Positions 13,468 through 57,058 of a stretch of 63,571 nucleotides of DNA are shown piece by piece (within the stretch, counting starts at the first letter, position 1; every line of letters begins with the position of its first letter). Position numbers and translations under genes: made by a program. The stretch is from the NCBI GenBank assembly GCA_949293185.1, contig CASFCQ010000003.1, forward strand, positions 1-63,571, in the 5' to 3' direction. Under the pieces are notes generated by a model. That model saw only the letters and a program-made list of their open reading frames with translations. It made no database searches and was not told where the DNA came from. The DNA comes from an uncultured bacterium. GTDB taxonomy: Bacteria; Cyanobacteriota; Vampirovibrionia; Gastranaerophilales; Gastranaerophilaceae.

Positions 13468-14544
13468 ATGATACAGTCACCTTTACAAAATTACACTATG
13501 CCCATGCAACCGGCACAAATTCCGGCACCGGAATACAATGCGATTAAGATTAACATTGTTGATCCAAAGGTCAATGTACCTGGCGCTCAACAAACACCTT
13601 CTGTATATTCTTATCCGCAATCACAAATTTACAGCTACCCGCAAGCACAACAACAAGTTTATGCACCGCAGGTATATGCCCAGCCGCCTGTACAGCAACA
13701 GGCACAAGTTTACATGCCGCAGCCGGCAGTAGTTCCCCAACCTGTATCAGTTCCAGCTCCTCAAGTTATAAATACACAAAATGTTAACGCTGCACCGCAG
13801 CCTGTAATTCCTCAACCTGAAGCACAGACACAAGCACCTGCAGCTCCTGCACCGGTTAATGCACCTGAACCAACAGCTGCACCTCAGCCTGCTGCAGCAC
13901 CGGCAGTAAATGTACCGGCTTTTACACAAAGAATTAAATCAGATGACCTGGAAGATGCAGGAAAAGCAATTGAAGAAGTAGCTGATATTGCACAGACCAG
14001 ACCTGCACCGGAACTTCTGGATACCGATTTAATGGAAGCTTTGCTCGGTGTAATCGGAAAAGACAGCAGTACACTAGAAGGTCCTACTGAAAAGCAGAAA
14101 GAATTGAGACAGCAGGTTTTAGAAGGCAAGCAGCTTTCTGATGCCGATATGGCAGAAGCTAACAAAATTACTCCGTTAGAAATGGCTGAAAGAAATAAAC
14201 AATATGCATTGTTCACAACAGCTATCTTGCAAAATCAATTAATTGATGAATTCAAAAAAACTAATAACGTAACTCCAGGTATCAAAGATTTACCGGGTAT
14301 GGAACAGATTGTTCAAACAATTAAAGACAACCCGAACCCGATGCTCAGAGCCAGCGGTCTTGCTGCATTAGCTTATAACGCCAGACCGGAATACAAACCT
14401 GTTATGAAAGAAATATTTGAACTGTCTCAACAGGATGTTGATGAAAACGTTCAAAAAGTAGCAGCAGAAGGTCTTGCTAAATTAGCAACAATTATGGACG
14501 CTCCTGCAGCTCAACAACCGTCAGCCCCGGCTCAGGCAGCATAA
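13468..14544 (+). CDS. Pro/Gln-rich protein with C-terminal HEAT-like helical domain
   Basis: A 358-residue protein of unknown function. Residues about 1-150 are low-complexity, dominated by Pro, Gln, Ala, Val and Tyr, with repeated YPQ, YAQP and APAP units. They begin with the EYNAIKINIV tag shared with the gene at 13127. Residues about 155-345 are helical. The last part (NPMLRASGLAALAYN to DENVQKVAAEGLAKLAT) resembles HEAT/ARM-type repeats, which usually bind other proteins. There is no signal peptide or membrane segment. An AAGGGG site precedes the ATG and a terminator follows. It looks like a scaffold or adaptor with a flexible arm; that is inference. Confidence 0.8.
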   Translation: MIQSPLQNYTMPMQPAQIPAPEYNAIKINIVDPKVNVPGAQQTPSVYSYPQSQIYSYPQAQQQVYAPQVYAQPPVQQQAQVYMPQPAVVPQPVSVPAPQVINTQNVNAAPQPVIPQPEAQTQAPAAPAPVNAPEPTAAPQPAAAPAVNVPAFTQRIKSDDLEDAGKAIEEVADIAQTRPAPELLDTDLMEALLGVIGKDSSTLEGPTEKQKELRQQVLEGKQLSDADMAEANKITPLEMAERNKQYALFTTAILQNQLIDEFKKTNNVTPGIKDLPGMEQIVQTIKDNPNPMLRASGLAALAYNARPEYKPVMKEIFELSQQDVDENVQKVAAEGLAKLATIMDAPAAQQPSAPAQAA

Positions 14545-41061: not shown

Positions 41062-42489
41062 GTGTATAATATTTCAGCATTAAACAATTACAATGTGAAT
41101 ATGCCGAAAGCCAATACTCTTAACGGTCTAAAGGGTGTTTCGAACAATAATGCAACAAATCCTGCTGCAGGTATTTCGCATACAAATGCCATTTATAACA
41201 CTCAATACTTTATGCCATCTTTTGGAGTAAATCAGATAAGGACTTCGCTTTCTAGCAGAGACGAGAAAAACAAGTATAACGAAATCTCCTCGATAATTGA
41301 TAAAAAAGCCAGAAAGGATTTGCAAGAGCTTTTAAAAAACGGCAAATTACTTAACGCAAATTCTAATGACGGAACAACAACTTTAGATAATTTATACACT
41401 ATAGCCACCGTAAAAAGAGCACAAGGATTGGATAAAAAGAACATCTTAGAAGAAACAATAAAAGCGATAAAACATCCGTACATTATTCCGCAAAAATTCG
41501 GAGATATTCCTGTTAACCTGCAGCCCGAGATTATTAATCACGAAACTGCACAAGGAAAAAACATCTCTTCTTACGATCTTGATGTAAAATCCAGCACCTG
41601 CCCAGCAGCAAGCATTGAATTTGATATTGCACACAGAATGCCGGCAGAGTTTGCCAGAATGGTTGCCGGTCTTACATCAGAAGACATGTGCATAACAAAA
41701 AAAATTAATGTGAATGAATTATCTCAGGGGCTTCTTGACACAGTATGGATGCTTAATGAATTCGGTACAGAGCACAAAATGGAAAATTGGAACACGCTCG
41801 TAGTCAAACTAAGACCTGACAGAAATGCAATAATTAGGGCAAGAATCCAAAATTCCTACAAAGACCCGGACGAAAGGTCACTTGTTGATGTATTGATGCA
41901 ATCTACATTTATGAATGTCGGTGCACAAAACACCTACGATTCGCTTATCGATAAAAGAATACCTAAATATAACGATGATGACAGCGGTCTTATTGATATA
42001 GAAAAAAACTTTGCAGAAGAACTGGCAACAGGCAAAGGTAAAGTGTGTGTTACTTATCAAAAAATAGACGACAATGGCAGACTTGTAGGCTATGAGTGTG
42101 ACCAGAGCGAAACCTTGTCTCACATACAAAACACGCTGAACGGCGGGGATAATGTTATCATCGGTTACACATACTGTGACAGTGATAACAATGTTATTGG
42201 CGGACACGAAATAACTATTATCGGCATAGATACTGATAAAAAAGGTCAGAAATATTTTATATGCAACGATACTGATGACGGAATATCTGACCCTATTAAA
42301 TATCGTGTTGATGAATTACTTCCTAAAATCCACCACGCAGGGATTCCGAAATCCGTACTTGTCGACAATGTTGAGTTTGTTGAAGGCTGGAAGGAATTAA
42401 TGCAAATATACAAAGAAAGCAAAACCCAAAGCGAACTGCAAAACAGCTTGCAAAACAACAGACTGTCCGTATTAACTCAGGCTGCATAA
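41062..42489 (+). CDS. Papain-like (C39-type) cysteine peptidase-like protein
   Basis: A 475-residue protein starting at GTG with AGGTGG 10 nt before. The N-terminal 60 residues are Asn-rich and contain MPSFGVNQ, an F-G motif like those at 54150 and 55001. A candidate nucleophile Cys lies in SSTCPAASIEFDIA (about 180). The catalytic His candidate is in GGHEITIIGIDTD (about 385), and an Asp/Asn follows in FICNDTDDGISDP. This His-then-NDT spacing is typical of papain-fold C39-like peptidases. There is no Sec signal. If exported it would need another route. The substrate is unknown; the assignment is by pattern only. Confidence 0.65.
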   Translation: MYNISALNNYNVNMPKANTLNGLKGVSNNNATNPAAGISHTNAIYNTQYFMPSFGVNQIRTSLSSRDEKNKYNEISSIIDKKARKDLQELLKNGKLLNANSNDGTTTLDNLYTIATVKRAQGLDKKNILEETIKAIKHPYIIPQKFGDIPVNLQPEIINHETAQGKNISSYDLDVKSSTCPAASIEFDIAHRMPAEFARMVAGLTSEDMCITKKINVNELSQGLLDTVWMLNEFGTEHKMENWNTLVVKLRPDRNAIIRARIQNSYKDPDERSLVDVLMQSTFMNVGAQNTYDSLIDKRIPKYNDDDSGLIDIEKNFAEELATGKGKVCVTYQKIDDNGRLVGYECDQSETLSHIQNTLNGGDNVIIGYTYCDSDNNVIGGHEITIIGIDTDKKGQKYFICNDTDDGISDPIKYRVDELLPKIHHAGIPKSVLVDNVEFVEGWKELMQIYKESKTQSELQNSLQNNRLSVLTQAA

Positions 42490-42783: not shown

Positions 42784-45700
42784 TCATTTATTGCCGATAT
42801 TCCATCTTAAACCTGCTGTCAATGACACACCGTTTCGTCCGCCGTTGTGTATCATTGTCTGGAAATATCCAAGGAAATCATTATTGAAACGTCTCTGAAC
42901 ACCTGCGCCGTACTGAACATATGGTCTTATACTCATTTCAGGAAGACGTACATCATTCGCCATAACTTTTGTATCATTAAGCAAATTCCATACCATGTTC
43001 ACACCAATGTATGGCTGCCAGCCGTTCTTGGTATTTCCAATTAATTTTATTCCCGGAGCAAGCTGGATTGCATGGAGCGGATCAGAATCAATACGTACAC
43101 CCGCAGCATTATTGTAATCAAAAGTATTTATAAAGCTATAAGATATTAACATACTTGGCTGAAAAATCATTTTTCCGTCCCAAAATTCAATGTTATAACC
43201 TGTTTTGTTACCGATACCCGCCATCAACATTGTATAGTTTTCAGAGCCGTACATTGTACTTGCATCACCTGCGGAAGCTCCTACACTTAAAGTTGTTGCG
43301 TTAAAGAAGTTACCTTTGTAGAAGGTTGCAGTAGAGCCTAACAATCCGCCGTTTTGATATGCATCAACGCCCTGATATCTTTGAGATGCGCCGTTATATC
43401 CGATATAACCGGTTAATACACGTTCCCAACCGTTTGAAAGCGTTGTAAGAGGGCTATCATATCCAACAAGAGTACCGTAATTTATGTTCGAAACTTTCTG
43501 ACCGTTTTTAAGTGGTATTGATTCAAAACTGGCATAAGGCTTTACCCAGAAACCGGCATCCTCTTCTTTGGTAAGAAGTGGTGAAAAAGTTCCAATGTCC
43601 GTTGCATCTCCTGTAGGAGAGAGTGCGTAACGCCCCTGATTTTTCATAGCAACACGTTCAATATACGGTATGTTCATAAATGTATCAGCATGCTGGAAGG
43701 CATAGTTAAACGCCTGCAGCTGGGTAGTATAAGCACCTGCCTGCTGAACAACAGGTGCTGCCAGTACAGAGGGGTTATAGCTGTTTGCGTTGCCTGCAGC
43801 ACCGCGGACAAATGTAAAATACCCGAGTTTATCTTCCGGATTAGTTCCGTATGATACGTCATATTTCCATATTTTTGAGTATGCTACAGGATTTATGCCC
43901 GTGTATTGAACATTTGGTGCTAATTCCTTATCAGCAAACAATACATGCGTAACATCTTTAGTTGCATCATTTAAAAGATTAAGCTGATTTACGTTAAGAT
44001 AAGCATCAGCATTAACATTGTATGTGTCAGCTGTTATTCTGTCCATCTTTGCATTTTTAAGATCAACATCAGCAGCAAGATTTGTATCTCCATTCAGATT
44101 AAGTACAGGGATATGCATTGTACCGACACTGTTATTCGTCATGTACATTGAACCGGAATTAAGACTCAATTTTTGTGATTCATCAAACACATTCTCTCTG
44201 CCAAGATACAGGTTTGTATTATCTAATGAAATGTTGGCGTTTATTACATCGTTATTTAAAATAACTTTACCTGTAGAGTCGCCTGTAATCTTTAAATTAA
44301 AAGCAGCTGACGGATCTTTTATTACAGCAACAGAAACAGGAGCAGCGTTAATCAAAGTTGAAACCCCATTCCCTATTTCAGAAATACCGCCGGATGCCGA
44401 CATATCGATTGCACCGCCTTTTATCTTGTCATCAAACCGTATAACACCGTTATTAACAGCTTTCAGAGTCAAAGTTGCAGGATTTTCTTTAGAGACATTA
44501 GGTACATCAGGTTTAACAGTCTCATAACCAGTAATCATAGAGGCTAAATCAACATAAACATATGTGCCGTCCTCGAGTTTAGTACCTATGCCGTAAATAG
44601 ATATAGCGTTTGATTCTTCTTTATCGCCTTTAATGGTTTTGTTTCCGCTAAACAAAGATAAACCGTTGTCTGCAGTAATATTTAAATCGGTGATACTGAA
44701 TATTGCACCGCCCGCGGCAATTCCGTCAGCATTTTTATTTTCTGCAACGTTATTTACGAACGATGAATTAATAATTTCACCGGGAGTAAATTCATAATGT
44801 ACAGATTGTCTGGTTGAACCTGTTACTTCTTCAATTTTTCCAAAGACACCAAAATTAGCTATAGCACCGCCTAAAGCCATTTGAGAATCAGTTACGGCTT
44901 TGTTATCCATAAAGTTGCCTTTGATATTACCAATTACAGAAGTATTAGCAATCGCACCGCCCATTGCTGTATAAGTCCCTTGAGCGTAGTTTGCAATAAA
45001 ATCGCCTGTGATATTACCTATTTGTCCTGATTCGTTTAAAATAGCGCCGCCCATTGCCGAATAATAAGGACTTAGAGCATAGTTTTTAATAAAATCACCG
45101 GTTATGTTTCCAATATCAGCCTGAGAATTATATATAGCACCTCCGCCCATACCACCTGACATTGCAGCCATAGTCTGAGCACCGGAAGATTGTTGAATTT
45201 GTGTTACATAATTTCCTATAAAATCACCGTTAACATCCCCGATTTCAGCCCCATACTCATTTGATATAGCACCGCCACTGGCATTGCCTTCAAAAGAAAC
45301 AGCGTAGTTGTTTATAAAATTAGCGTTTAATGAGCCAATAATTCCTTCGTTATGAAGTGCACCTCCTGATGCAACATAGTCAGCCTCAGCATAATTTCCT
45401 ATAAAATCACCGGATATGGATTTTATTACAGGTAATACCAAAGTTCCTTCACCCATAAGTGATGTATTGAGTACAACATTGCTTATTGCGCCGCCATGAG
45501 CTTCACCTGCCATTGATAATACAGATGCAGTGGTAGTTTGATTATTTTTGCTTGCAGACGCACTGTTATTTGCAAAAGTTCCTTCTATTTTATCTATATT
45601 GCCTGCGTTAGTTATTGCACCTCCATAGGCAAGACCCGAGTCAATTGAATTTGTATTATTTACAAAATCACCGGTTATACTGCCGACTGTATTTTGGGGA

Positions 45701-46170
45701 TTATTTATAACAGCAGCAGCCGCACCGTCGTGAGCTTGCAATCCAACAAAATCATTATCTATATTCGTATTGTTTTGCGATGTAACTCTGTCAGAAGCTA
45801 ATCTCTTTTCGTTGACATAATATGTTATATCGTGGTCACTTTCACTGCCATCAACAAGGACAGTACGACCGTTTATATTTTCAAACTTAAAGTAGAGTGT
45901 ATCTGATGAATTCAGCTTGTCACCGTATTCAATTTTGCTTAAATCAACACGGTAATATACAGGTACTAGCTTATTTTCAGTTTGTGAATACTCATATTGT
46001 GTAATAGTATCGGCATTTGGTGATTCAACTTTTGTTAACGTGTATGCGCTATTGTCTGTTTGTACGGATGCTGGGACAGGAGGTGTATCTGCTGCCATCA
46101 CAGGTGCTGCGATGAAGAAGGACAGTGCAAGGGTCAAGGCTGCCGTTTGCACGCTGCGAAGCAATGTCAT
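42784..46170 (-). CDS. Type V autotransporter with GGA(I/L)-repeat passenger
   Basis: A very large surface protein. Starting at MTLLRSVQTAALTLAL it has a Sec signal of about 27 residues (cleavage after VMA). A beta-helix passenger follows with many repeats of the form GGAI-N, I-G-N/D-I, G-D-F-I-x-N-Y-A, as in polymorphic outer-membrane and adhesin proteins. The C-terminal ~270 residues form an autotransporter barrel (FWVKPYASFESIPLKNG to the end), closing with GVSLTAGLRWNIGNK. The frame stays open upstream to an ATG at 46344 with AAGGA before it, but those 58 residues are encoded by repeat DNA. The real start is thus uncertain. Probable role: adhesion or interaction with host or neighbours. 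Confidence 0.9.
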   Translation of the reverse strand: MTLLRSVQTAALTLALSFFIAAPVMAADTPPVPASVQTDNSAYTLTKVESPNADTITQYEYSQTENKLVPVYYRVDLSKIEYGDKLNSSDTLYFKFENINGRTVLVDGSESDHDITYYVNEKRLASDRVTSQNNTNIDNDFVGLQAHDGAAAAVINNPQNTVGSITGDFVNNTNSIDSGLAYGGAITNAGNIDKIEGTFANNSASASKNNQTTTASVLSMAGEAHGGAISNVVLNTSLMGEGTLVLPVIKSISGDFIGNYAEADYVASGGALHNEGIIGSLNANFINNYAVSFEGNASGGAISNEYGAEIGDVNGDFIGNYVTQIQQSSGAQTMAAMSGGMGGGAIYNSQADIGNITGDFIKNYALSPYYSAMGGAILNESGQIGNITGDFIANYAQGTYTAMGGAIANTSVIGNIKGNFMDNKAVTDSQMALGGAIANFGVFGKIEEVTGSTRQSVHYEFTPGEIINSSFVNNVAENKNADGIAAGGAIFSITDLNITADNGLSLFSGNKTIKGDKEESNAISIYGIGTKLEDGTYVYVDLASMITGYETVKPDVPNVSKENPATLTLKAVNNGVIRFDDKIKGGAIDMSASGGISEIGNGVSTLINAAPVSVAVIKDPSAAFNLKITGDSTGKVILNNDVINANISLDNTNLYLGRENVFDESQKLSLNSGSMYMTNNSVGTMHIPVLNLNGDTNLAADVDLKNAKMDRITADTYNVNADAYLNVNQLNLLNDATKDVTHVLFADKELAPNVQYTGINPVAYSKIWKYDVSYGTNPEDKLGYFTFVRGAAGNANSYNPSVLAAPVVQQAGAYTTQLQAFNYAFQHADTFMNIPYIERVAMKNQGRYALSPTGDATDIGTFSPLLTKEEDAGFWVKPYASFESIPLKNGQKVSNINYGTLVGYDSPLTTLSNGWERVLTGYIGYNGASQRYQGVDAYQNGGLLGSTATFYKGNFFNATTLSVGASAGDASTMYGSENYTMLMAGIGNKTGYNIEFWDGKMIFQPSMLISYSFINTFDYNNAAGVRIDSDPLHAIQLAPGIKLIGNTKNGWQPYIGVNMVWNLLNDTKVMANDVRLPEMSIRPYVQYGAGVQRRFNNDFLGYFQTMIHNGGRNGVSLTAGLRWNIGNK

Positions 46171-46290
46171 TCTGAAGCATTTATCGTTGCAGGTTTGCGA
46201 GGATTGGGGGTGTTCAGAATCTGACCAATGTTCTTGGCAATCATTTATCACCGGTAAGATCCTGAGCTCGCTTCGCTCCTCAGGATGACA
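46166..46290. repeat. 125-bp dispersed repeat, copy B, at the autotransporter 5' end
   Basis: The same element as at 42571-42695, direct orientation, 3.6 kb away. The autotransporter start codon (46168-46170 on the minus strand) lies inside its first five bases. In the longer reading frame the repeat is translated as a CHPEERSE-type peptide, a product often seen when such repeats are called as coding. Confidence 0.92.
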
Positions 46291-46339
46291 TATTGTATTT
46301 TTAGAGCCTTGCTTGTGTCGTTGGCAAGAATCTAAAATG

Positions 46340-46425
46340 TACATAGATCCTTCGGCTAACGCCTCAGGATGACGTTCAGAAAATGTCTCTGGATGACATT
46401 CTGTAAATGCAATTTCTTCCGGATG
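46340..46425. repeat. Partial relatives of the dispersed repeat
   Basis: GATCCTTCGGCTAACGCCTCAGGATGACG (about 46347-46375) and CTCTGGATGACATTCTG (about 46389-46405) share the CAGGATGACG/GTCATTCTGA ends of the 125-bp element. The remaining gap to 46796 is AT-rich apart from a GC-richer patch at about 46434-46490 in which I see no gene. Confidence 0.6.
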
Positions 46426-51506: not shown

Positions 51507-53789
51507 ATGACAGACAATAGTGAAGAAAAAAATGAATTAGTGCCGGCAGATTCGGAGTCGGAATCAGAAAATAATACGGAGCTTGTTAAAGAACCGGAAG
51601 AACAAGGTCCTGATTTTAGTATATTTCAGCCCCTGAAAGACATGCTGATACAGCAGCACCGCACGCAGAAGGATATTAAAGAAATAGAAGATGCCTATGT
51701 GTTCGCAGCTAAATTACACGCAGGACAGTACAGGATAAGCGAAGAACCTTATATTGTCCACCCTGTTGAAGTTGCGAAGATTTTGACAGACTTAATGATG
51801 GACAAACATACTATTATTGCTGCACTTCTTCACGATATAATTGAAGATACAGGCACAAGCCCCGAAACAATAAAAGAACATTTTGGAGAAGATGTACTCA
51901 ACCTTGTTCAAGGTGTAACAAAACTCGGTAAATACCAGTTTAAATCAAAAGAAGAACGTCAGGCAGAGAACTTCAGGCGAATGTTTATTGCAATGGCTAA
52001 CGATGTAAGAGTTATTTTCTTAAAACTTGCTGACCGCCTGCATAATATGCGAACGCTGAATTATATGGCAGCAGCCAAACAGCAAAAAATAGCACAGGAA
52101 ACTCTTGATATTTTTGCACCTCTCGCAAACAGACTCGGTATCGGTAAAATTAAAGCAGAGCTTGAAGATTTATCATTGAGATACCTTAATCCTGAAAAAT
52201 ACTTTGAAATAGCACAGCTTGTCGCTCTAAAAAAAGCGGAAAGAGATGCAACAATACAGGTTCTTGTAGAAAAAATCAGCCAGATACTAAAACAACACAA
52301 AATAAAAGCTACTATCTCAGGTCGTTCAAAGCATTATTACTCTATTTATGCTAAAATGAAACGTCAAAATGTTGCATTCCACGAGCTTTATGACATATCG
52401 GCGGTAAGAGTTATAGTCGATACGGTAAACGAATGCTATGAGGTTCTCGGGATTATTCACTCACAGTTTAAACCTATACCGGGCAGATTCAAAGATTATA
52501 TAGCAATGCCCAAAAGCAACATGTACCGGTCACTGCATACATCTGTACTAGGTCCTAAATCAAAACCTATTGAAGTACAAATCAGAACACACGAAATGCA
52601 TCAGGTTGCAGAATACGGTGTTGCCGCACACTGGAAATATAAAGAAAAAGGTTCGCAAAAAGCTAATGCTGATACAGATATCCAATTTTCCTGGATGCGC
52701 AAACTTGCCGAAATGGAAAAAGACGTTTCCTCTGCCAGCGAATATGTTGAAAGCGTAAAACTGGATTTATTTTCCGATCAGGTATTTGCATTTACCCCGA
52801 GAGGCGATGTTATAGACCTGCCTAAAGATGCAACGCCTGTGGATTTTGCTTTTAGAATCCACACTGATGTCGGATTCAGAATAACAGGCGCACTTGTTAA
52901 CGGACGGATTTGCCCGCTTTCAACCAAACTGCACAACGGAGACATTGTTGAGATTATGACATCTAAAACGCCTGCACCCAGGTTAGATTGGCTCAACTTT
53001 GTTGTGACAAAACTTGCTCAATCAAAAATCAAGCAGTGGTACAAGAAAAACAAAAGAGAAGAACACGTTACACTCGGGCACAATATGCTTGAGGCTGAAA
53101 TCGGCAAGACTAAGCTGGATGAACTCGTTAAATCCGGCGAGTTGAAACAGATTGCAGAGTCAATGAACTATTCCTGCATTGATGATCTTCTCGCCGCACT
53201 GGGATACGGGGAGACAACCGTCAACAAGATAACTAACCGTATAAAAAAGCCGGATGATGATGACCAGCCTCTAATATCACACACTAAAACCAAAAAATCC
53301 AAAAATGACATAGTCGGGCTGGAAGGTATGCTGTATTACTTTGCAAAATGCTGCACACCCGTTCCGGGAGAACCTATTGTCGGTGTAGTAACCCGCAGCA
53401 AGGGGGTATCTATCCACCGTGTTGATTGCCCGTCTTTGGATAATGTTCCGGAAGAACGCCTTATTGACATAAAATGGGCAGACAAAGGACTGAACAAGAC
53501 ATATGTTGCATCTATACGTATTGATGTACAGGATAAAATGGGTATTTTAAAAGATGTAATGATAGAACTTACCGAATGCAATACCAATATAGCATACGCT
53601 AACATCAAATCTAATCCTGCAAAAAAAATCGGTATTATTGAAATGGGGATAGAGGTAGACAACGTCAACAGATTGAAAACTGTCATTACAAAATTACAAT
53701 CAATACCGGAAGTTATTTCTGTAAAAAGAATACAGGGAACTGCTAAACCACAAAATGAATCTGCACCCATGCCTAAAAAGAAAAAGTAG
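51507..53789 (+). CDS. rel: Bifunctional (p)ppGpp synthetase/hydrolase
   Basis: Stringent-response enzyme that makes and breaks (p)ppGpp. Domains in order: an acidic N-terminal extension (about 1-45), the HD hydrolase (about 65-215; YIVHPVEVAKIL, then LLHDIIEDT), and the synthetase (about 260-390). The synthetase shows the GRFKDYIAMPKSNMYRSLHT and VEQIR-like IEVQIRTHEM motifs. The TGS domain (about 410-475) has FAFTPRGDVIDLPKDATPVD. The C-terminal helical/zinc-finger region contains YYFAKCCTPVPG, and an ACT domain closes the protein. Both active sites look intact. Length 760 is normal. Confidence 0.96.
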   Translation: MTDNSEEKNELVPADSESESENNTELVKEPEEQGPDFSIFQPLKDMLIQQHRTQKDIKEIEDAYVFAAKLHAGQYRISEEPYIVHPVEVAKILTDLMMDKHTIIAALLHDIIEDTGTSPETIKEHFGEDVLNLVQGVTKLGKYQFKSKEERQAENFRRMFIAMANDVRVIFLKLADRLHNMRTLNYMAAAKQQKIAQETLDIFAPLANRLGIGKIKAELEDLSLRYLNPEKYFEIAQLVALKKAERDATIQVLVEKISQILKQHKIKATISGRSKHYYSIYAKMKRQNVAFHELYDISAVRVIVDTVNECYEVLGIIHSQFKPIPGRFKDYIAMPKSNMYRSLHTSVLGPKSKPIEVQIRTHEMHQVAEYGVAAHWKYKEKGSQKANADTDIQFSWMRKLAEMEKDVSSASEYVESVKLDLFSDQVFAFTPRGDVIDLPKDATPVDFAFRIHTDVGFRITGALVNGRICPLSTKLHNGDIVEIMTSKTPAPRLDWLNFVVTKLAQSKIKQWYKKNKREEHVTLGHNMLEAEIGKTKLDELVKSGELKQIAESMNYSCIDDLLAALGYGETTVNKITNRIKKPDDDDQPLISHTKTKKSKNDIVGLEGMLYYFAKCCTPVPGEPIVGVVTRSKGVSIHRVDCPSLDNVPEERLIDIKWADKGLNKTYVASIRIDVQDKMGILKDVMIELTECNTNIAYANIKSNPAKKIGIIEMGIEVDNVNRLKTVITKLQSIPEVISVKRIQGTAKPQNESAPMPKKKK

Positions 53790-53861: not shown

Positions 53862-53954
53862 CATTTTTGCAAGAATGAATTATGATACATGTAACAAATC
53901 CCCAAATCTCCTCCCAAGATTATGAAGTATAAGCTGCAAAGCAGCTTTTTTTTT
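53862..53954 (+). ncRNA. Candidate small RNA with a CUCCUCC stretch
   Basis: A terminator (AAGCTGC-AAA-GCAGCTT followed by nine T residues, 53931-53954) stands about 140 bp after the rel stop with no gene between. Upstream lies an unstructured C-rich segment, CCCCAAATCTCCTCCCAAG (about 53900-53918), complementary to Shine-Dalgarno sequences. A promoter-like TATAAA is near 53850. This fits a short regulatory RNA, but it could equally be a rel 3' UTR. The rest of the gap up to 54149 shows nothing else. Confidence 0.35.
53931..53954 (+). terminator. Strong intrinsic terminator
   Basis: A 7-bp stem AAGCTGC / GCAGCTT with an AAA loop and nine T residues, ending rel or the candidate small RNA. Confidence 0.92.
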
Positions 53955-54149: not shown

Positions 54150-54932
54150 ATGACATCTATTCATCAAAGCGTAGGTTGTTCACCAATAAAACCATCATTC
54201 AAAGGCAATCAGGATGTATTAAACGCAGCAGCTGACTGGTTAGAAGCTGCAGGTGCAAACGGCTATAACGAAGACAGTTTTCACAGTCTTGAAGGCGTTG
54301 CTGATAAAATGAATGACGGTCCAATTAAAACATTTGCTAAAATTGCAGCTATTGCAGGTGCAGCAGGTTTAGCCGGTAAAAAAGGTTTACAAGCAGCTTA
54401 CACTAAATTTTCTAACAATCCTCAGGTAAGAGAACATATTATGCAGCCGATTACAAAATTGGCTGACAAAGGTTTACAAAAATTAAACAGATTTGTCACA
54501 CAAAATCCGGCAGTCGGTCAAAAGAGCTTAAAGGGCTTTATCATGACAAACGCTAAAAAAGGAATGGAAGCTCTTAACGATTACGCTCAAAAAGGTACAG
54601 AAGCTGTAAAAGACAGTATTGACAAACAATTAGAAGGTATCAGAAAAGCAGCAGCTAATGCAGTTAAAAAAGCTGCAGCCAAAGACGGCAAAACATTAAC
54701 TGATAAACAAATTACTGCAGAAGTAACCAAAAGACTCGCAGGCAAATCCAAACAAGCAGAAAATTATAAAAAACTTGTTGAACAAAAGAACTTAGCTTCT
54801 ACAGACAATTTAATCAAAAAAGTATCAACTGATGTAGCAGGTATCTCAGCAGGTACAACAGCAGCAGTAGCTGCTAACAGAGACAAAGACGGCGATGGTA
54901 TCGCTGATATCGGTCAACACTCTGCTGCATAA
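54150..54932 (+). CDS. Hypothetical protein, first of a tandem paralogue pair
   Basis: A 260-residue protein; GGAG 8 nt upstream fixes the start at MTSIHQSVGCSP. No Sec signal. Order of features: a short N-terminal segment with PSFKGNQ, a weakly hydrophobic Ala/Gly helix (about 60-85, TFAKIAAIAGAAGLAGKKGL), and long Lys/Ala-rich helices. Then comes a KTLTDKQITAEVTKRL block, and at the C-terminus a calcium-loop-like DKDGDGIADIGQ. The plan repeats in the next gene. Codons are Lys/Ala-biased as in highly expressed genes. Function unknown; it may be a surface or shell-type structural protein. Confidence 0.8.
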   Translation: MTSIHQSVGCSPIKPSFKGNQDVLNAAADWLEAAGANGYNEDSFHSLEGVADKMNDGPIKTFAKIAAIAGAAGLAGKKGLQAAYTKFSNNPQVREHIMQPITKLADKGLQKLNRFVTQNPAVGQKSLKGFIMTNAKKGMEALNDYAQKGTEAVKDSIDKQLEGIRKAAANAVKKAAAKDGKTLTDKQITAEVTKRLAGKSKQAENYKKLVEQKNLASTDNLIKKVSTDVAGISAGTTAAVAANRDKDGDGIADIGQHSAA

Positions 54933-55000
54933 AATATAAACAAAATTAAAATTTACAATTACGAAACATTAATAACAGTTTACGGTAGGCATCACAAATT

Positions 55001-55828
55001 ATGTTACAAATTAACTCATTAAATACTTCATCCGCATATGGAACACATAGAACCAACTTCGGTCAAAAAGATTCTGACTTTCAAAGAATCACAAATGTTT
55101 TGACCCAAGAAAACCGTGCAGGAAAAAGCGATGAAGAATTTAAAGCCGAAAAATTAGAGAAGTTAGCAGAGATTATCAATGACAAAAACAAACAAGCACC
55201 AAGCGCGTTAAAATCATTTACTATAGTTGGCGCACTCAGTCTTGCAAGCGGATTGACAGCATCTGTTGTTACAGGCAGATTCTACAACTTTATCAATCAG
55301 GCAACACCATTCTTAGGCAAAATGGGCAGATATGCATTAAATAATCTCGGCAAAGCACAAGAATCCCTTGCTAAAGCAGCAAAACAAACAGAAGGCGCTA
55401 AAGCTACAGTTCTTAATGCAGGAAACAAAACATTAGTATGGTTAAAAGATTTAAGCAAAAACGGTGTAAAAAAAGAATTAGCAGAAGTTGCACATAAAGA
55501 CAAAACAGAATTAGCTAACCTGAGAAAGCAAATCAGAGAAGCAGCAGCTAAAAAAGGTAACAAATTAACTGCTAAAGAAGTTAACGCTGAATTAAAAAAC
55601 CGTCTTCAGTTAGAAACAGAAGAGGTAATGGGCGCTAACCTTCTAAAAAAAGGCACAAAAACCCTTGTTGGCGCTACAGCAGGTATCGGTACTTTAAAAG
55701 AAGCTGCAACTGATGAAAACAAAGACGGTATTCCTGATGTAGTACAAAGAAAAGACGCTCATCAAAAAGCAACAGAACAGGTTACAGCTGCACTTATTGA
55801 TTGTGCATTAGATTCTTGCGGAATTTAA
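55001..55828 (+). CDS. Hypothetical protein, second of the tandem paralogue pair
   Basis: A 275-residue protein with the same plan as its upstream neighbour, 68 bp away. It has an N-terminal NFGQKD motif, then a hydrophobic helix (about 67-92, SALKSFTIVGALSLASGLTASVV) clearer than in the first copy. Lys/Ala-rich helices follow, with a KLTAKEVNAELKNRL block and a C-terminal DENKDGIPDVVQ acidic loop. About 27 residues with two Cys extend beyond that loop. A GGTAGG lies before the ATG. Homology of the two rests on order and block similarity by eye. Function unknown. Confidence 0.8.
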   Translation: MLQINSLNTSSAYGTHRTNFGQKDSDFQRITNVLTQENRAGKSDEEFKAEKLEKLAEIINDKNKQAPSALKSFTIVGALSLASGLTASVVTGRFYNFINQATPFLGKMGRYALNNLGKAQESLAKAAKQTEGAKATVLNAGNKTLVWLKDLSKNGVKKELAEVAHKDKTELANLRKQIREAAAKKGNKLTAKEVNAELKNRLQLETEEVMGANLLKKGTKTLVGATAGIGTLKEAATDENKDGIPDVVQRKDAHQKATEQVTAALIDCALDSCGI

Positions 55829-55876: not shown

Positions 55877-57058
55877 ATGGAGAATAATTTTAAACTTAAA
55901 ATTTTAAGCTGCAAGGAATCAGACCTCAAAGATATTGGTCTGGATAAAACGTACACACATCGAGCACTGGATAAGCACAGATTTAAAACGTTAAAAATTT
56001 ACGGTCTGTCTTGTGCGCAGGCTAATATTATCAAACAAACCGCACTCAGCAGCGGTACTGATTGTGCCGTACACAGAGAAGTCATCACCGGCAAAGTTGA
56101 AACATCAGACTGCATACTAAGCGGCAGCATAGATGAATTAAAAAAAATTTCCGAAAAACTAAAATACCAGCCTCTTAAACTGTCTGTACTGGCGCAGGAT
56201 ATAAAGAATCTTCTGGCTGACAATCTTTCGCCTATAACGATAAGAGATTTTGTACTTAATTGGGAAGAACCTTACATAATGGGGATATTAAACATAACCC
56301 CGGATTCATTCTCAGATGGCGGATTATATAACAGCCCGGAAAATGCTGTTGAACACTACAAATATCTTGTTGAAAATGGAGCTAATATTGTCGATATAGG
56401 CGGCGAATCAACAAGACCGTTCAGCGAAAAAGTTTCTCCTCAAGAAGAACAGAACAGAGTACTACCTGTTATAGCAAAAATACGTGAAATTGACAAAAAA
56501 ACAATTTTAAGTATAGACACAAGAAATGCATCTACGGCAAAGAAAGCATTAGAACTAGGCGTTGACATCATAAATGACGTGTCTGCAACAGAATGGGATT
56601 CTGATATACAAAAAGTTGCCTGTGAATATAATTGTCCTATTATACTCGGGCATGCCAGCGCATCTCCGGATATCATGCAACATCACACAGACTACAAGGA
56701 TGTAGTGGAAGAAATATTTAATTATTTCTATCAAAAAATCGATTTTCTAACATTTTTAGGTATAGAAAAACATAACATTATCATTGATCCGGGACTTGGT
56801 TTTGGAAAAACAACGCAGCAAAATTTCGAAATAATTAACAGAATTGAGGAATTTAAAACTCTGGGATGTCCCATACTTGTCGGACATTCACGCAAGAAAT
56901 TTATCAGAGAAACGCTTGAGACTGAAGATTTGGAAGAACTTGATGAAGCAACAGCAATACTAACTCAAAAGTTAATTGAAAAAAAAGTTAATATCATCAG
57001 GGTGCATAATGTAAAGCTGAACAATATTGCTAAAAAATTAAGCAAATCATTTTTTTAA
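55877..57058 (+). CDS. folP: Dihydropteroate synthase with N-terminal extension
   Basis: Condenses p-aminobenzoate with dihydropterin pyrophosphate in folate synthesis. The enzyme domain starts near residue 130: YIMGILNITPDSFSDGG, then VDIGGESTRPFSE, ILSIDTRNASTAKKAL, IIIDPGLGFGKTTQQN and VGHSRKKFI, all canonical. About 130 residues precede it with an unrelated fold, probably a separate small domain; such extended forms occur in some bacteria. The 3' end overlaps the opposite gene at 57047 by 12 bp. Confidence 0.95.
   Translation: MENNFKLKILSCKESDLKDIGLDKTYTHRALDKHRFKTLKIYGLSCAQANIIKQTALSSGTDCAVHREVITGKVETSDCILSGSIDELKKISEKLKYQPLKLSVLAQDIKNLLADNLSPITIRDFVLNWEEPYIMGILNITPDSFSDGGLYNSPENAVEHYKYLVENGANIVDIGGESTRPFSEKVSPQEEQNRVLPVIAKIREIDKKTILSIDTRNASTAKKALELGVDIINDVSATEWDSDIQKVACEYNCPIILGHASASPDIMQHHTDYKDVVEEIFNYFYQKIDFLTFLGIEKHNIIIDPGLGFGKTTQQNFEIINRIEEFKTLGCPILVGHSRKKFIRETLETEDLEELDEATAILTQKLIEKKVNIIRVHNVKLNNIAKKLSKSFF

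What the first reader, a model, noticed from the sequence alone, without database searches (positions are those of the whole stretch)
54150..55828. Tandem paralogues with helical bodies and C-terminal calcium-like loops, no known family
Two adjacent genes encode proteins with the same order of parts: a short N-terminal F-K-G or F-G motif, an Ala/Gly hydrophobic helix, Lys/Ala-rich helices, an LT-x-K-x-x-x-A-E-x-x-x-R-L block, and a C-terminal Asp-rich loop (DKDGDGIADIGQ and DENKDGIPDVVQ) like EF-hand or thrombospondin type-3 loops. Neither has a Sec signal. Codon use looks like that of well-expressed genes. This is the strongest candidate here for an undescribed structural or surface system.
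Basis: partly seen in the sequence, partly recalled or inferred. Interest (0 to 1): 0.65.

Follow-up and report, generated by a model that had tools for sequence, protein, structure and literature searches.

The report
Abundant tagged helical protein pair
Two neighbouring, probably very abundant bacterial proteins of unknown family are a duplicated pair with a short front-end tag that unrelated proteins also carry, which may be an undescribed address label in a group of gut bacteria.

Summary
Genes A (54150-54932) and B (55001-55828) are real tandem paralogues (BLASTP E 2e-9; profile-profile probability 99.7%). They match no known family or fold. Both are under purifying selection and among the most codon-adapted genes sampled (ranks 7 and 17 of 308). 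They sit between RSH (rel/spoT) and folP. Other members of the genus have one gene (C) there; A, B and C are each one clade, so the pair looks like a duplication. Relatives occur upstream of folP in other genera of the family and elsewhere in two more families of the order (Gastranaerophilales).

Three elements define the family: an N-terminal F-tag (39 of 39 rows), two weakly hydrophobic segments, and one DxDxDG-type loop (39 of 39).

The F-tag also begins unrelated proteins: a second GH77 enzyme carries it in 20 of 20 genomes, the first GH77 paralogue in 0 of 29. A planned replicate on a second M16 peptidase failed (5 of 20), and proteome-wide enrichment on held-out stretches is modest.

All 11 flagellin-less order members retain an FlhA homologue; in the two whose cluster I read, FliF, FliH and FlhA stand together. 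That is a candidate, unproven, export machine. Function remains inferred.

The parts
54150..54932 (+). gene A, 260 aa
   Evidence: RSH and folP as neighbours in relatives
55001..55828 (+). gene B, 275 aa, paralogue of A
54174..54206 (+). N-terminal tag of A (GCSPIKPSFKG)
   Evidence: F17 invariant in 25 rows; F[KGRQ] in the first 32 residues of 39 of 39 rows
55055..55066 (+). N-terminal tag of B (NFGQ)
   Evidence: F20 and G21 invariant in 12 B rows
54321..54377 (+). first hydrophobic segment of A (residues 58-76)
   Evidence: hydropathy 1.13
55217..55273 (+). first hydrophobic segment of B (residues 73-91)
   Evidence: hydropathy 1.65
54696..54737 (+). LT...AE...RL block of A
   Evidence: alignment; confident helices around it
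55565..55606 (+). LT...AE...RL block of B
   Evidence: alignment
54822..54878 (+). second, weak hydrophobic segment of A (residues 225-243)
   Evidence: hydropathy 0.86
55640..55696 (+). second, weak hydrophobic segment of B (residues 214-232)
   Evidence: hydropathy 0.60
54882..54917 (+). DxDxDG-type loop of A
   Evidence: 39 of 39 family rows; 2 of 1373 sampled ORFs outside the family
55712..55747 (+). DxDxDG-type loop of B
55757..55816 (+). C-terminal helix of B, also in form C, absent from A
   Evidence: alignment; low-confidence model
53931..53947 (+). terminator-like stem between RSH and A
   Evidence: pattern only; 3 found against 2.5 in shuffles
51507..53789 (+). RSH (rel/spoT) gene, conserved upstream neighbour
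   Evidence: named from its sequence by recall
55877..57058 (+). folP-like gene, conserved downstream neighbour
   Evidence: named from its sequence by recall
41062..42489 (+). unrelated protein in the window with a tag-like N-terminus (MPSFGVN)
   Evidence: no Pfam match

Best explanation
A and B are abundant, mostly helical proteins that share an N-terminal sorting tag (M-x-I/V, an N/S/Q/P-rich linker, then S/N/A-F-K/G/S/R) with unrelated proteins of the order. The tag most likely brings them, without a Sec signal, to or through the inner membrane. Their two weakly hydrophobic segments sit at a membrane, and the single DxDxDG loop behind the second one binds Ca2+ where Ca2+ is plentiful, outside the cytosol, ordering the C-terminus. 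One ancestral gene (form C) was duplicated in part of the genus; A lost the C-terminal helix and B kept it, so the two probably work together. The best candidate machine is the flagellum-derived export cluster that flagellin-less members keep. Shown: paralogy, synteny, purifying selection, codon adaptation, conservation of tag and loop, the tag on an unrelated enzyme. Inferred: sorting, membrane contact, Ca2+ binding, partnership, the machine.
For: Tag F among six invariant columns of 25 rows at 38% mean identity and in 39 of 39 rows. Same tag in 20 of 20 second GH77 paralogues from 16 genera and 6 families, against 0 of 29 first paralogues; its F and R are 2 of 20 invariant columns in 17 rows. 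Loop in 39 of 39 rows, rare elsewhere; Excalibur calcium-binding domain is the only Pfam row for A's C-terminus, E 0.066, below its cut-off. N-terminal 30 residues of 39 tag-scoring proteins are rich in N, Q, H, P, S and poor in D, E, L against 436 others. CAI ranks 7 and 17 of 308. Class (ii) FHIPEP listed in all 11 flagellin-less order genomes and beside YscJ_FliF, FliH and a T3SS ATPase in the own genome. One duplication.
Against: No localisation data. The hydrophobic segments are weak (0.6-1.65). The planned M16-II test failed, 5 of 20. Held-out enrichment of the tag is modest and depends on the threshold. The tagged gene next to the export cluster is seen in G000 and G019 but not in L300, L301, L303, L304. 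The co-occurrence of tag and FHIPEP rests on few lineages and one FHIPEP-positive outsider lacks the tag. A and B are not in the export cluster. The relatives upstream of folP in other genera mostly lack the loop.
Confidence: 0.4

Rival explanations
1. A and B stay inside the cell as abundant scaffold or inner-membrane-associated proteins. The F-tag is a short docking peptide that binds one common cytosolic partner; nothing is exported.
For: No Sec signal; weakly hydrophobic segments; the tag also stands on enzymes that are ordinarily cytosolic such as GH77; very high codon adaptation fits a bulk structural protein.
Against: A conserved DxDxDG loop makes more sense where Ca2+ is abundant (established knowledge, not tested here). 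Tagged N-termini are long, polar and poor in acidic residues, as recalled for type III export signals.
Confidence: 0.35
2. A and B work with their neighbours, in folate synthesis (folP) or the stringent response (RSH).
For: Conserved RSH-[A,B or C]-folP order in the genus; the place upstream of folP also holds in several other genera of the family.
Against: In families f6 and f7 the homologue is elsewhere, next to other genes. A and B look far more highly expressed than RSH and folP (CAI ranks 7 and 17 against 190 and 227 of 308).
Confidence: 0.05
3. The tag is chance similarity of short, low-complexity N-termini; A and B are simply a fast-evolving orphan family with a calcium loop.
For: Modest held-out enrichment and the failed M16-II test.
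Against: 20 of 20 against 0 of 29 in the GH77 paralogues, with F and R invariant in 17 rows.
Confidence: 0.2

Closest known systems
Early (rod/hook) substrates of flagellar type III export: N-terminal hydrophobic signal plus gate recognition motif (Bryant et al. 2022, PMC8983047; abstract and passages read)
   Same: Unchaperoned-looking N-terminus with small hydrophobic residues near the start and a second short motif downstream; no Sec signal.
   Different: The F motif in A and B lies 13-16 residues after the start residues, closer than the 26 or more residues reported there; no rod or hook homology; export not shown.
Type III translocator proteins (recalled)
   Same: Helical, one or two hydrophobic segments, two related genes side by side, no Sec signal.
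   Different: No sequence or fold match found; not in the export gene cluster; carries a DxDxDG loop.
Excalibur, EF-hand and TSP3-type calcium loops
   Same: D-x-D/N-x-D/N-G-x-x-D-x-x-E/Q loop.
   Different: One loop only, behind a hydrophobic segment; no family model reaches its cut-off.
Partial flagella gene sets of Gastranaerophilales (Soo et al. 2014, PMC4040986; Di Rienzi et al. 2013, PMC3787301; passages read)
   Same: The class (ii) FHIPEP cluster is very likely part of these sets.
   Different: Those papers read them as incomplete flagella; a use in exporting tagged proteins is my proposal.

Membership tests
EF-hand / Excalibur / TSP3 calcium-loop families | 12-residue loop with D/N at positions 1, 3, 5 and D/E/Q at 9 and 12 | tested here: met
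   loop pattern (positions 1-9) in 39 of 39 rows; E or Q at position 12 seen in the aligned rows
EF-hand / Excalibur / TSP3 calcium-loop families | match to a family model above its cut-off | tested here: not met
   whole proteins and C-terminal pieces against Pfam; best is Excalibur at E 0.066, 14 bits against a cut-off of 22
EF-hand / Excalibur / TSP3 calcium-loop families | binds Ca2+ | not testable with these tools
   needs a binding assay
Type III export substrates | export that depends on a type III machine | not testable with these tools
   needs a secretion assay
Type III export substrates | a type III export machine in the same genome | tested here: met
   FHIPEP, YscJ_FliF, FliH and T3SS ATPase in the own genome
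Type III translocators | sequence match to a solved or modelled translocator | tested here: inconclusive
   no match by Pfam, NCBIfam or PDB sequence; fold search with a model of mean pLDDT 59
Type III translocators | genes in or beside the export cluster | tested here: not met
   A and B lie between RSH and folP; the cluster is on another contig

The most novel reading that the evidence does not exclude
Gastranaerophilales use an order-wide N-terminal F-tag to route many unrelated proteins, A/B/C among the most abundant, into a flagellum-derived, flagellin-independent type III export machine. The 'incomplete flagella' of non-motile members would then be a working secretion system, and A and B its membrane-inserting, calcium-ordered products.
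Probability: 0.2. Interest if true: 0.88.

Novelty: new variant of a known kind. Interest (0 to 1): 0.6.

Why it matters
Published work describes six of nine Gastranaerophilales genomes as having only a subset of flagella genes that would not make a functional flagellum (Soo et al. 2014, PMC4040986, passages read). Why such genes are kept is open. A conserved tag shared by unrelated proteins, together with an FlhA-type gene kept by all 11 flagellin-less genomes examined, makes that question directly testable. It would also give an address label for proteins of a widespread gut lineage in which many proteins have no known family.

Tried and rejected
Known families: Pfam, NCBIfam, PHROGs and PDB sequences gave no significant match for A or B; single members of the family had scattered hits to unrelated models, best E 0.00012. 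Foldseek against PDB: 0 matches at E<=0.001. VIA-align on Foldseek's matches: best Z 7.5, within what its note gives for chance helical matches. The B model was not searched.

The second gene upstream of folP in other genera (alignment A8) is not related to A/B/C by profile, so the two-gene arrangements there and here are not shown to be the same pair.

Tripeptide counting did not reveal the tag. The first start-plus-motif test was made after seeing the data. Held-out tests were modest. The M16-II test stated beforehand failed, 5 of 20. The first M16 paralogue begins with hydrophobic, Sec-like N-termini in 28 of the 30 loci read.

The A+B+C profile over a class draw of 240 genomes gave 21 hits, all in family f1: not informative on the export machine.

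Papers: 'Gastranaerophilales' with 'N-terminal motif' none; with 'type III secretion' two off-topic listings; Melainabacteria with flagella and type III secretion two listings; further listings. That the tag is undescribed rests only on these searches.

Full report
WHAT IS THERE. Gene A (54150-54932) and gene B (55001-55828) are real. They align at E 2e-9 by BLASTP and with probability 99.7% by profiles. Pairwise dN/dS is 0.06-0.12 in the four pairs computed for each. By codon adaptation to three ribosomal protein genes they rank 7 and 17 of 308 own-genome genes sampled, against 190 for RSH and 227 for folP. Their synonymous distances are also lower than those of folP (0.37-1.06 against 1.99-2.18, though not for all the same pairs). 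Both points fit high expression. A terminator-like stem lies upstream of A at 53931-53947; B ends 48 bases before folP.

THE LOCUS. With protein A as query 19 of 59 relatives had a match, all in the own genus; with B 13 of 59. With an alignment of A, B and C the count was 32 of 59 at the loose limit E<=1, weak rows included. All 21 genus members in which a folP match was found also have A+B or the single form C; in the loci I read it lies directly upstream of folP and, where the contig reaches that far, downstream of RSH. G004 and G015 (80% and 89% complete) gave no folP match. Form C joins the N-terminal sequence of A to the C-terminal helix of B. In a tree of 39 rows A (12), B (12) and C (9) are each one clade (support 98/98, 100/98, 100/100), as expected of one duplication; the tree warns of long branches, and one of the 13 A rows (L004) was left out. 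A sister genus has the single form at the same place (L309).

FURTHER RELATIVES. In seven stretches from other genera of the family a gene just upstream of folP, or one small gene further up, has the same layout (alignment A7). It matches the A+B+C profile with probability 97.3%, score 81.3. Decoys scored 18.0 (reversed), at most 13.4 (20 column shuffles) and at most 41.6 (15 block shuffles). Families f6 and f7 of the order hold homologues with tag, two segments and loop in other gene neighbourhoods (E 4.8e-10 to 1.2e-4).

CONSERVED ELEMENTS. In the 25-row alignment six columns are invariant: the start, the tag phenylalanine, one glycine, and D, G, D of the loop. Over 39 rows F[KGRQ] is in the first 32 residues, and the loop pattern in the last 70, in 39 of 39. 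Of 1373 sampled ORFs 16 have the loop there, 14 of them family members. The relatives upstream of folP in other genera mostly lack the loop.

THE TAG ON OTHER PROTEINS. In own-genome stretches similar N-termini occur on proteins with Pfam matches to PRTase-CE, RNase T, 5'-nucleotidase, protein kinase and PLD-like domains, and weaker ones to GNAT and HNH; of 20 scanned, 8 had no match at E<=0.01. In G019, G014 and G046 they occur on AAA, TPR, M16 and GH77 proteins. The strongest case is GH77. The first paralogue has no tag (0 of 29 read of 30 loci). The second has it in 20 of 20 genomes from 16 genera and 6 families, at varying distance from the start. The tag's F and R are 2 of 20 invariant columns in 17 aligned rows of 32% mean column identity (3 of the 20 were left out of that alignment). 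The pattern was sharpened after the first look; the looser one also hits 7 of 29 first paralogues. L255 and L269 have over-long predicted starts.

RESULTS AGAINST. I wrote down beforehand that a second M16 paralogue should carry the tag; 5 of 20 do. On stretches of four genus members not used for training, with training from the own genome only, N-terminal hits were 25 against 13 interior in 224 proteins at threshold 7 (paired one-sided p 0.037), 18 against 10 at threshold 8 (p 0.09) and 14 against 7 at 9 (p 0.09). Among M.[IV] starters at threshold 7 it was 11 of 41 against 14 of 183 (p 0.0014), at 9 it was 5 of 41 against 9 of 183 (p 0.14). In three other families together: 8 against 4 in 130 at threshold 7 (p 0.19) (all). 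So the tag is well supported in A/B/C and GH77-II, while its reach over the proteome is uncertain.

A CANDIDATE MACHINE. FHIPEP (FlhA/SctV) is found in 58 of 59 relatives, the exception being the other-order genome G058. By score there are two full-length classes and a C-terminal-only class; this is a reading of scores, not a tree. By my count of the listed rows, class (i) is missing in all 11 order genomes without flagellin and in 4 of 47 with it. Class (ii) is listed for 54 of 58 order genomes (one split in two) and for all 11 without flagellin; the 4 misses are 88% complete or less. In the own genome class (ii) stands with YscJ_FliF, FliH and a T3SS ATPase; in two flagellin-less genomes, G027 and G031, FliF-like, FliH-like and FlhA genes also stand together (by sequence pattern). 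Outside the order, GH77 homologues lack the tag in 4 of 4 genomes without an FHIPEP match and in one with it (G120); another with it (G116) has an FGRAL that I judge by eye to be the tag, though the pattern used did not hit it. Soo et al. 2014 (PMC4040986) and Di Rienzi et al. 2013 (PMC3787301), passages read, describe partial flagella sets in this group. Bryant et al. 2022 (PMC8983047), abstract and passages read, describe a two-part N-terminal signal on early flagellar subunits with at least 26 residues between its parts; the tag resembles it loosely and is often shorter.

MECHANISM, SHOWN AND INFERRED. Shown: paralogy, gene order, selection, codon adaptation, conservation of tag and loop, the same tag on GH77-II. 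Inferred: that the tag sorts, that the weak hydrophobic segments meet a membrane, that the loop binds Ca2+ outside the cytosol, that A and B act together, and that the export cluster is the machine. Models of A and B have mean pLDDT 59 and 56; only A's helices at about 151-222 are confident, and no fold match is convincing.

VERDICT. The pair is a duplicated, probably abundant, undescribed family. Its most interesting feature is the N-terminal tag, which it shares with at least one unrelated enzyme across the order.

Noticed in passing
L298:6707-8164 (own genome, contig C50); also beside the second GH77 gene in G034, G031, G027, G035: Stand-alone proteins of about 490 aa whose C-terminal part matches the cytosolic half of FHIPEP/FlhA (E 6e-54), in the own genome beside genes that look like minC/minD/minE, elsewhere next to the tagged GH77 gene.
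   Followed up: partly
L296:6389-7549 and L306:3963-5132: A tagged protein without Pfam match stands directly upstream of the FliF-like gene of the class (ii) export cluster in two genus members.
   Followed up: partly
L315:2755-4824: Three tandem genes for small proteins with hydrophobic stretches and similar tag-like N-termini in another genus of the family.
   Followed up: no
window 41062-42489: Protein with a tag-like N-terminus (MPSFGVN) and no Pfam match; by eye its C-terminal half could be a cysteine-peptidase-like domain.
   Followed up: no
window 42784-46344: 1186-aa protein on the minus strand with GAISN/GDF-type repeats and an autotransporter-like C-terminus, by eye.
   Followed up: no
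window 13468-14544; L110:16282-17490: Other genes of unknown role with codon adaptation near that of ribosomal proteins.
   Followed up: no
L275-L294: The second M16 peptidase paralogue often starts with a long N/Q/Y/P-rich extension without F-tag or Sec-like start.
   Followed up: partly
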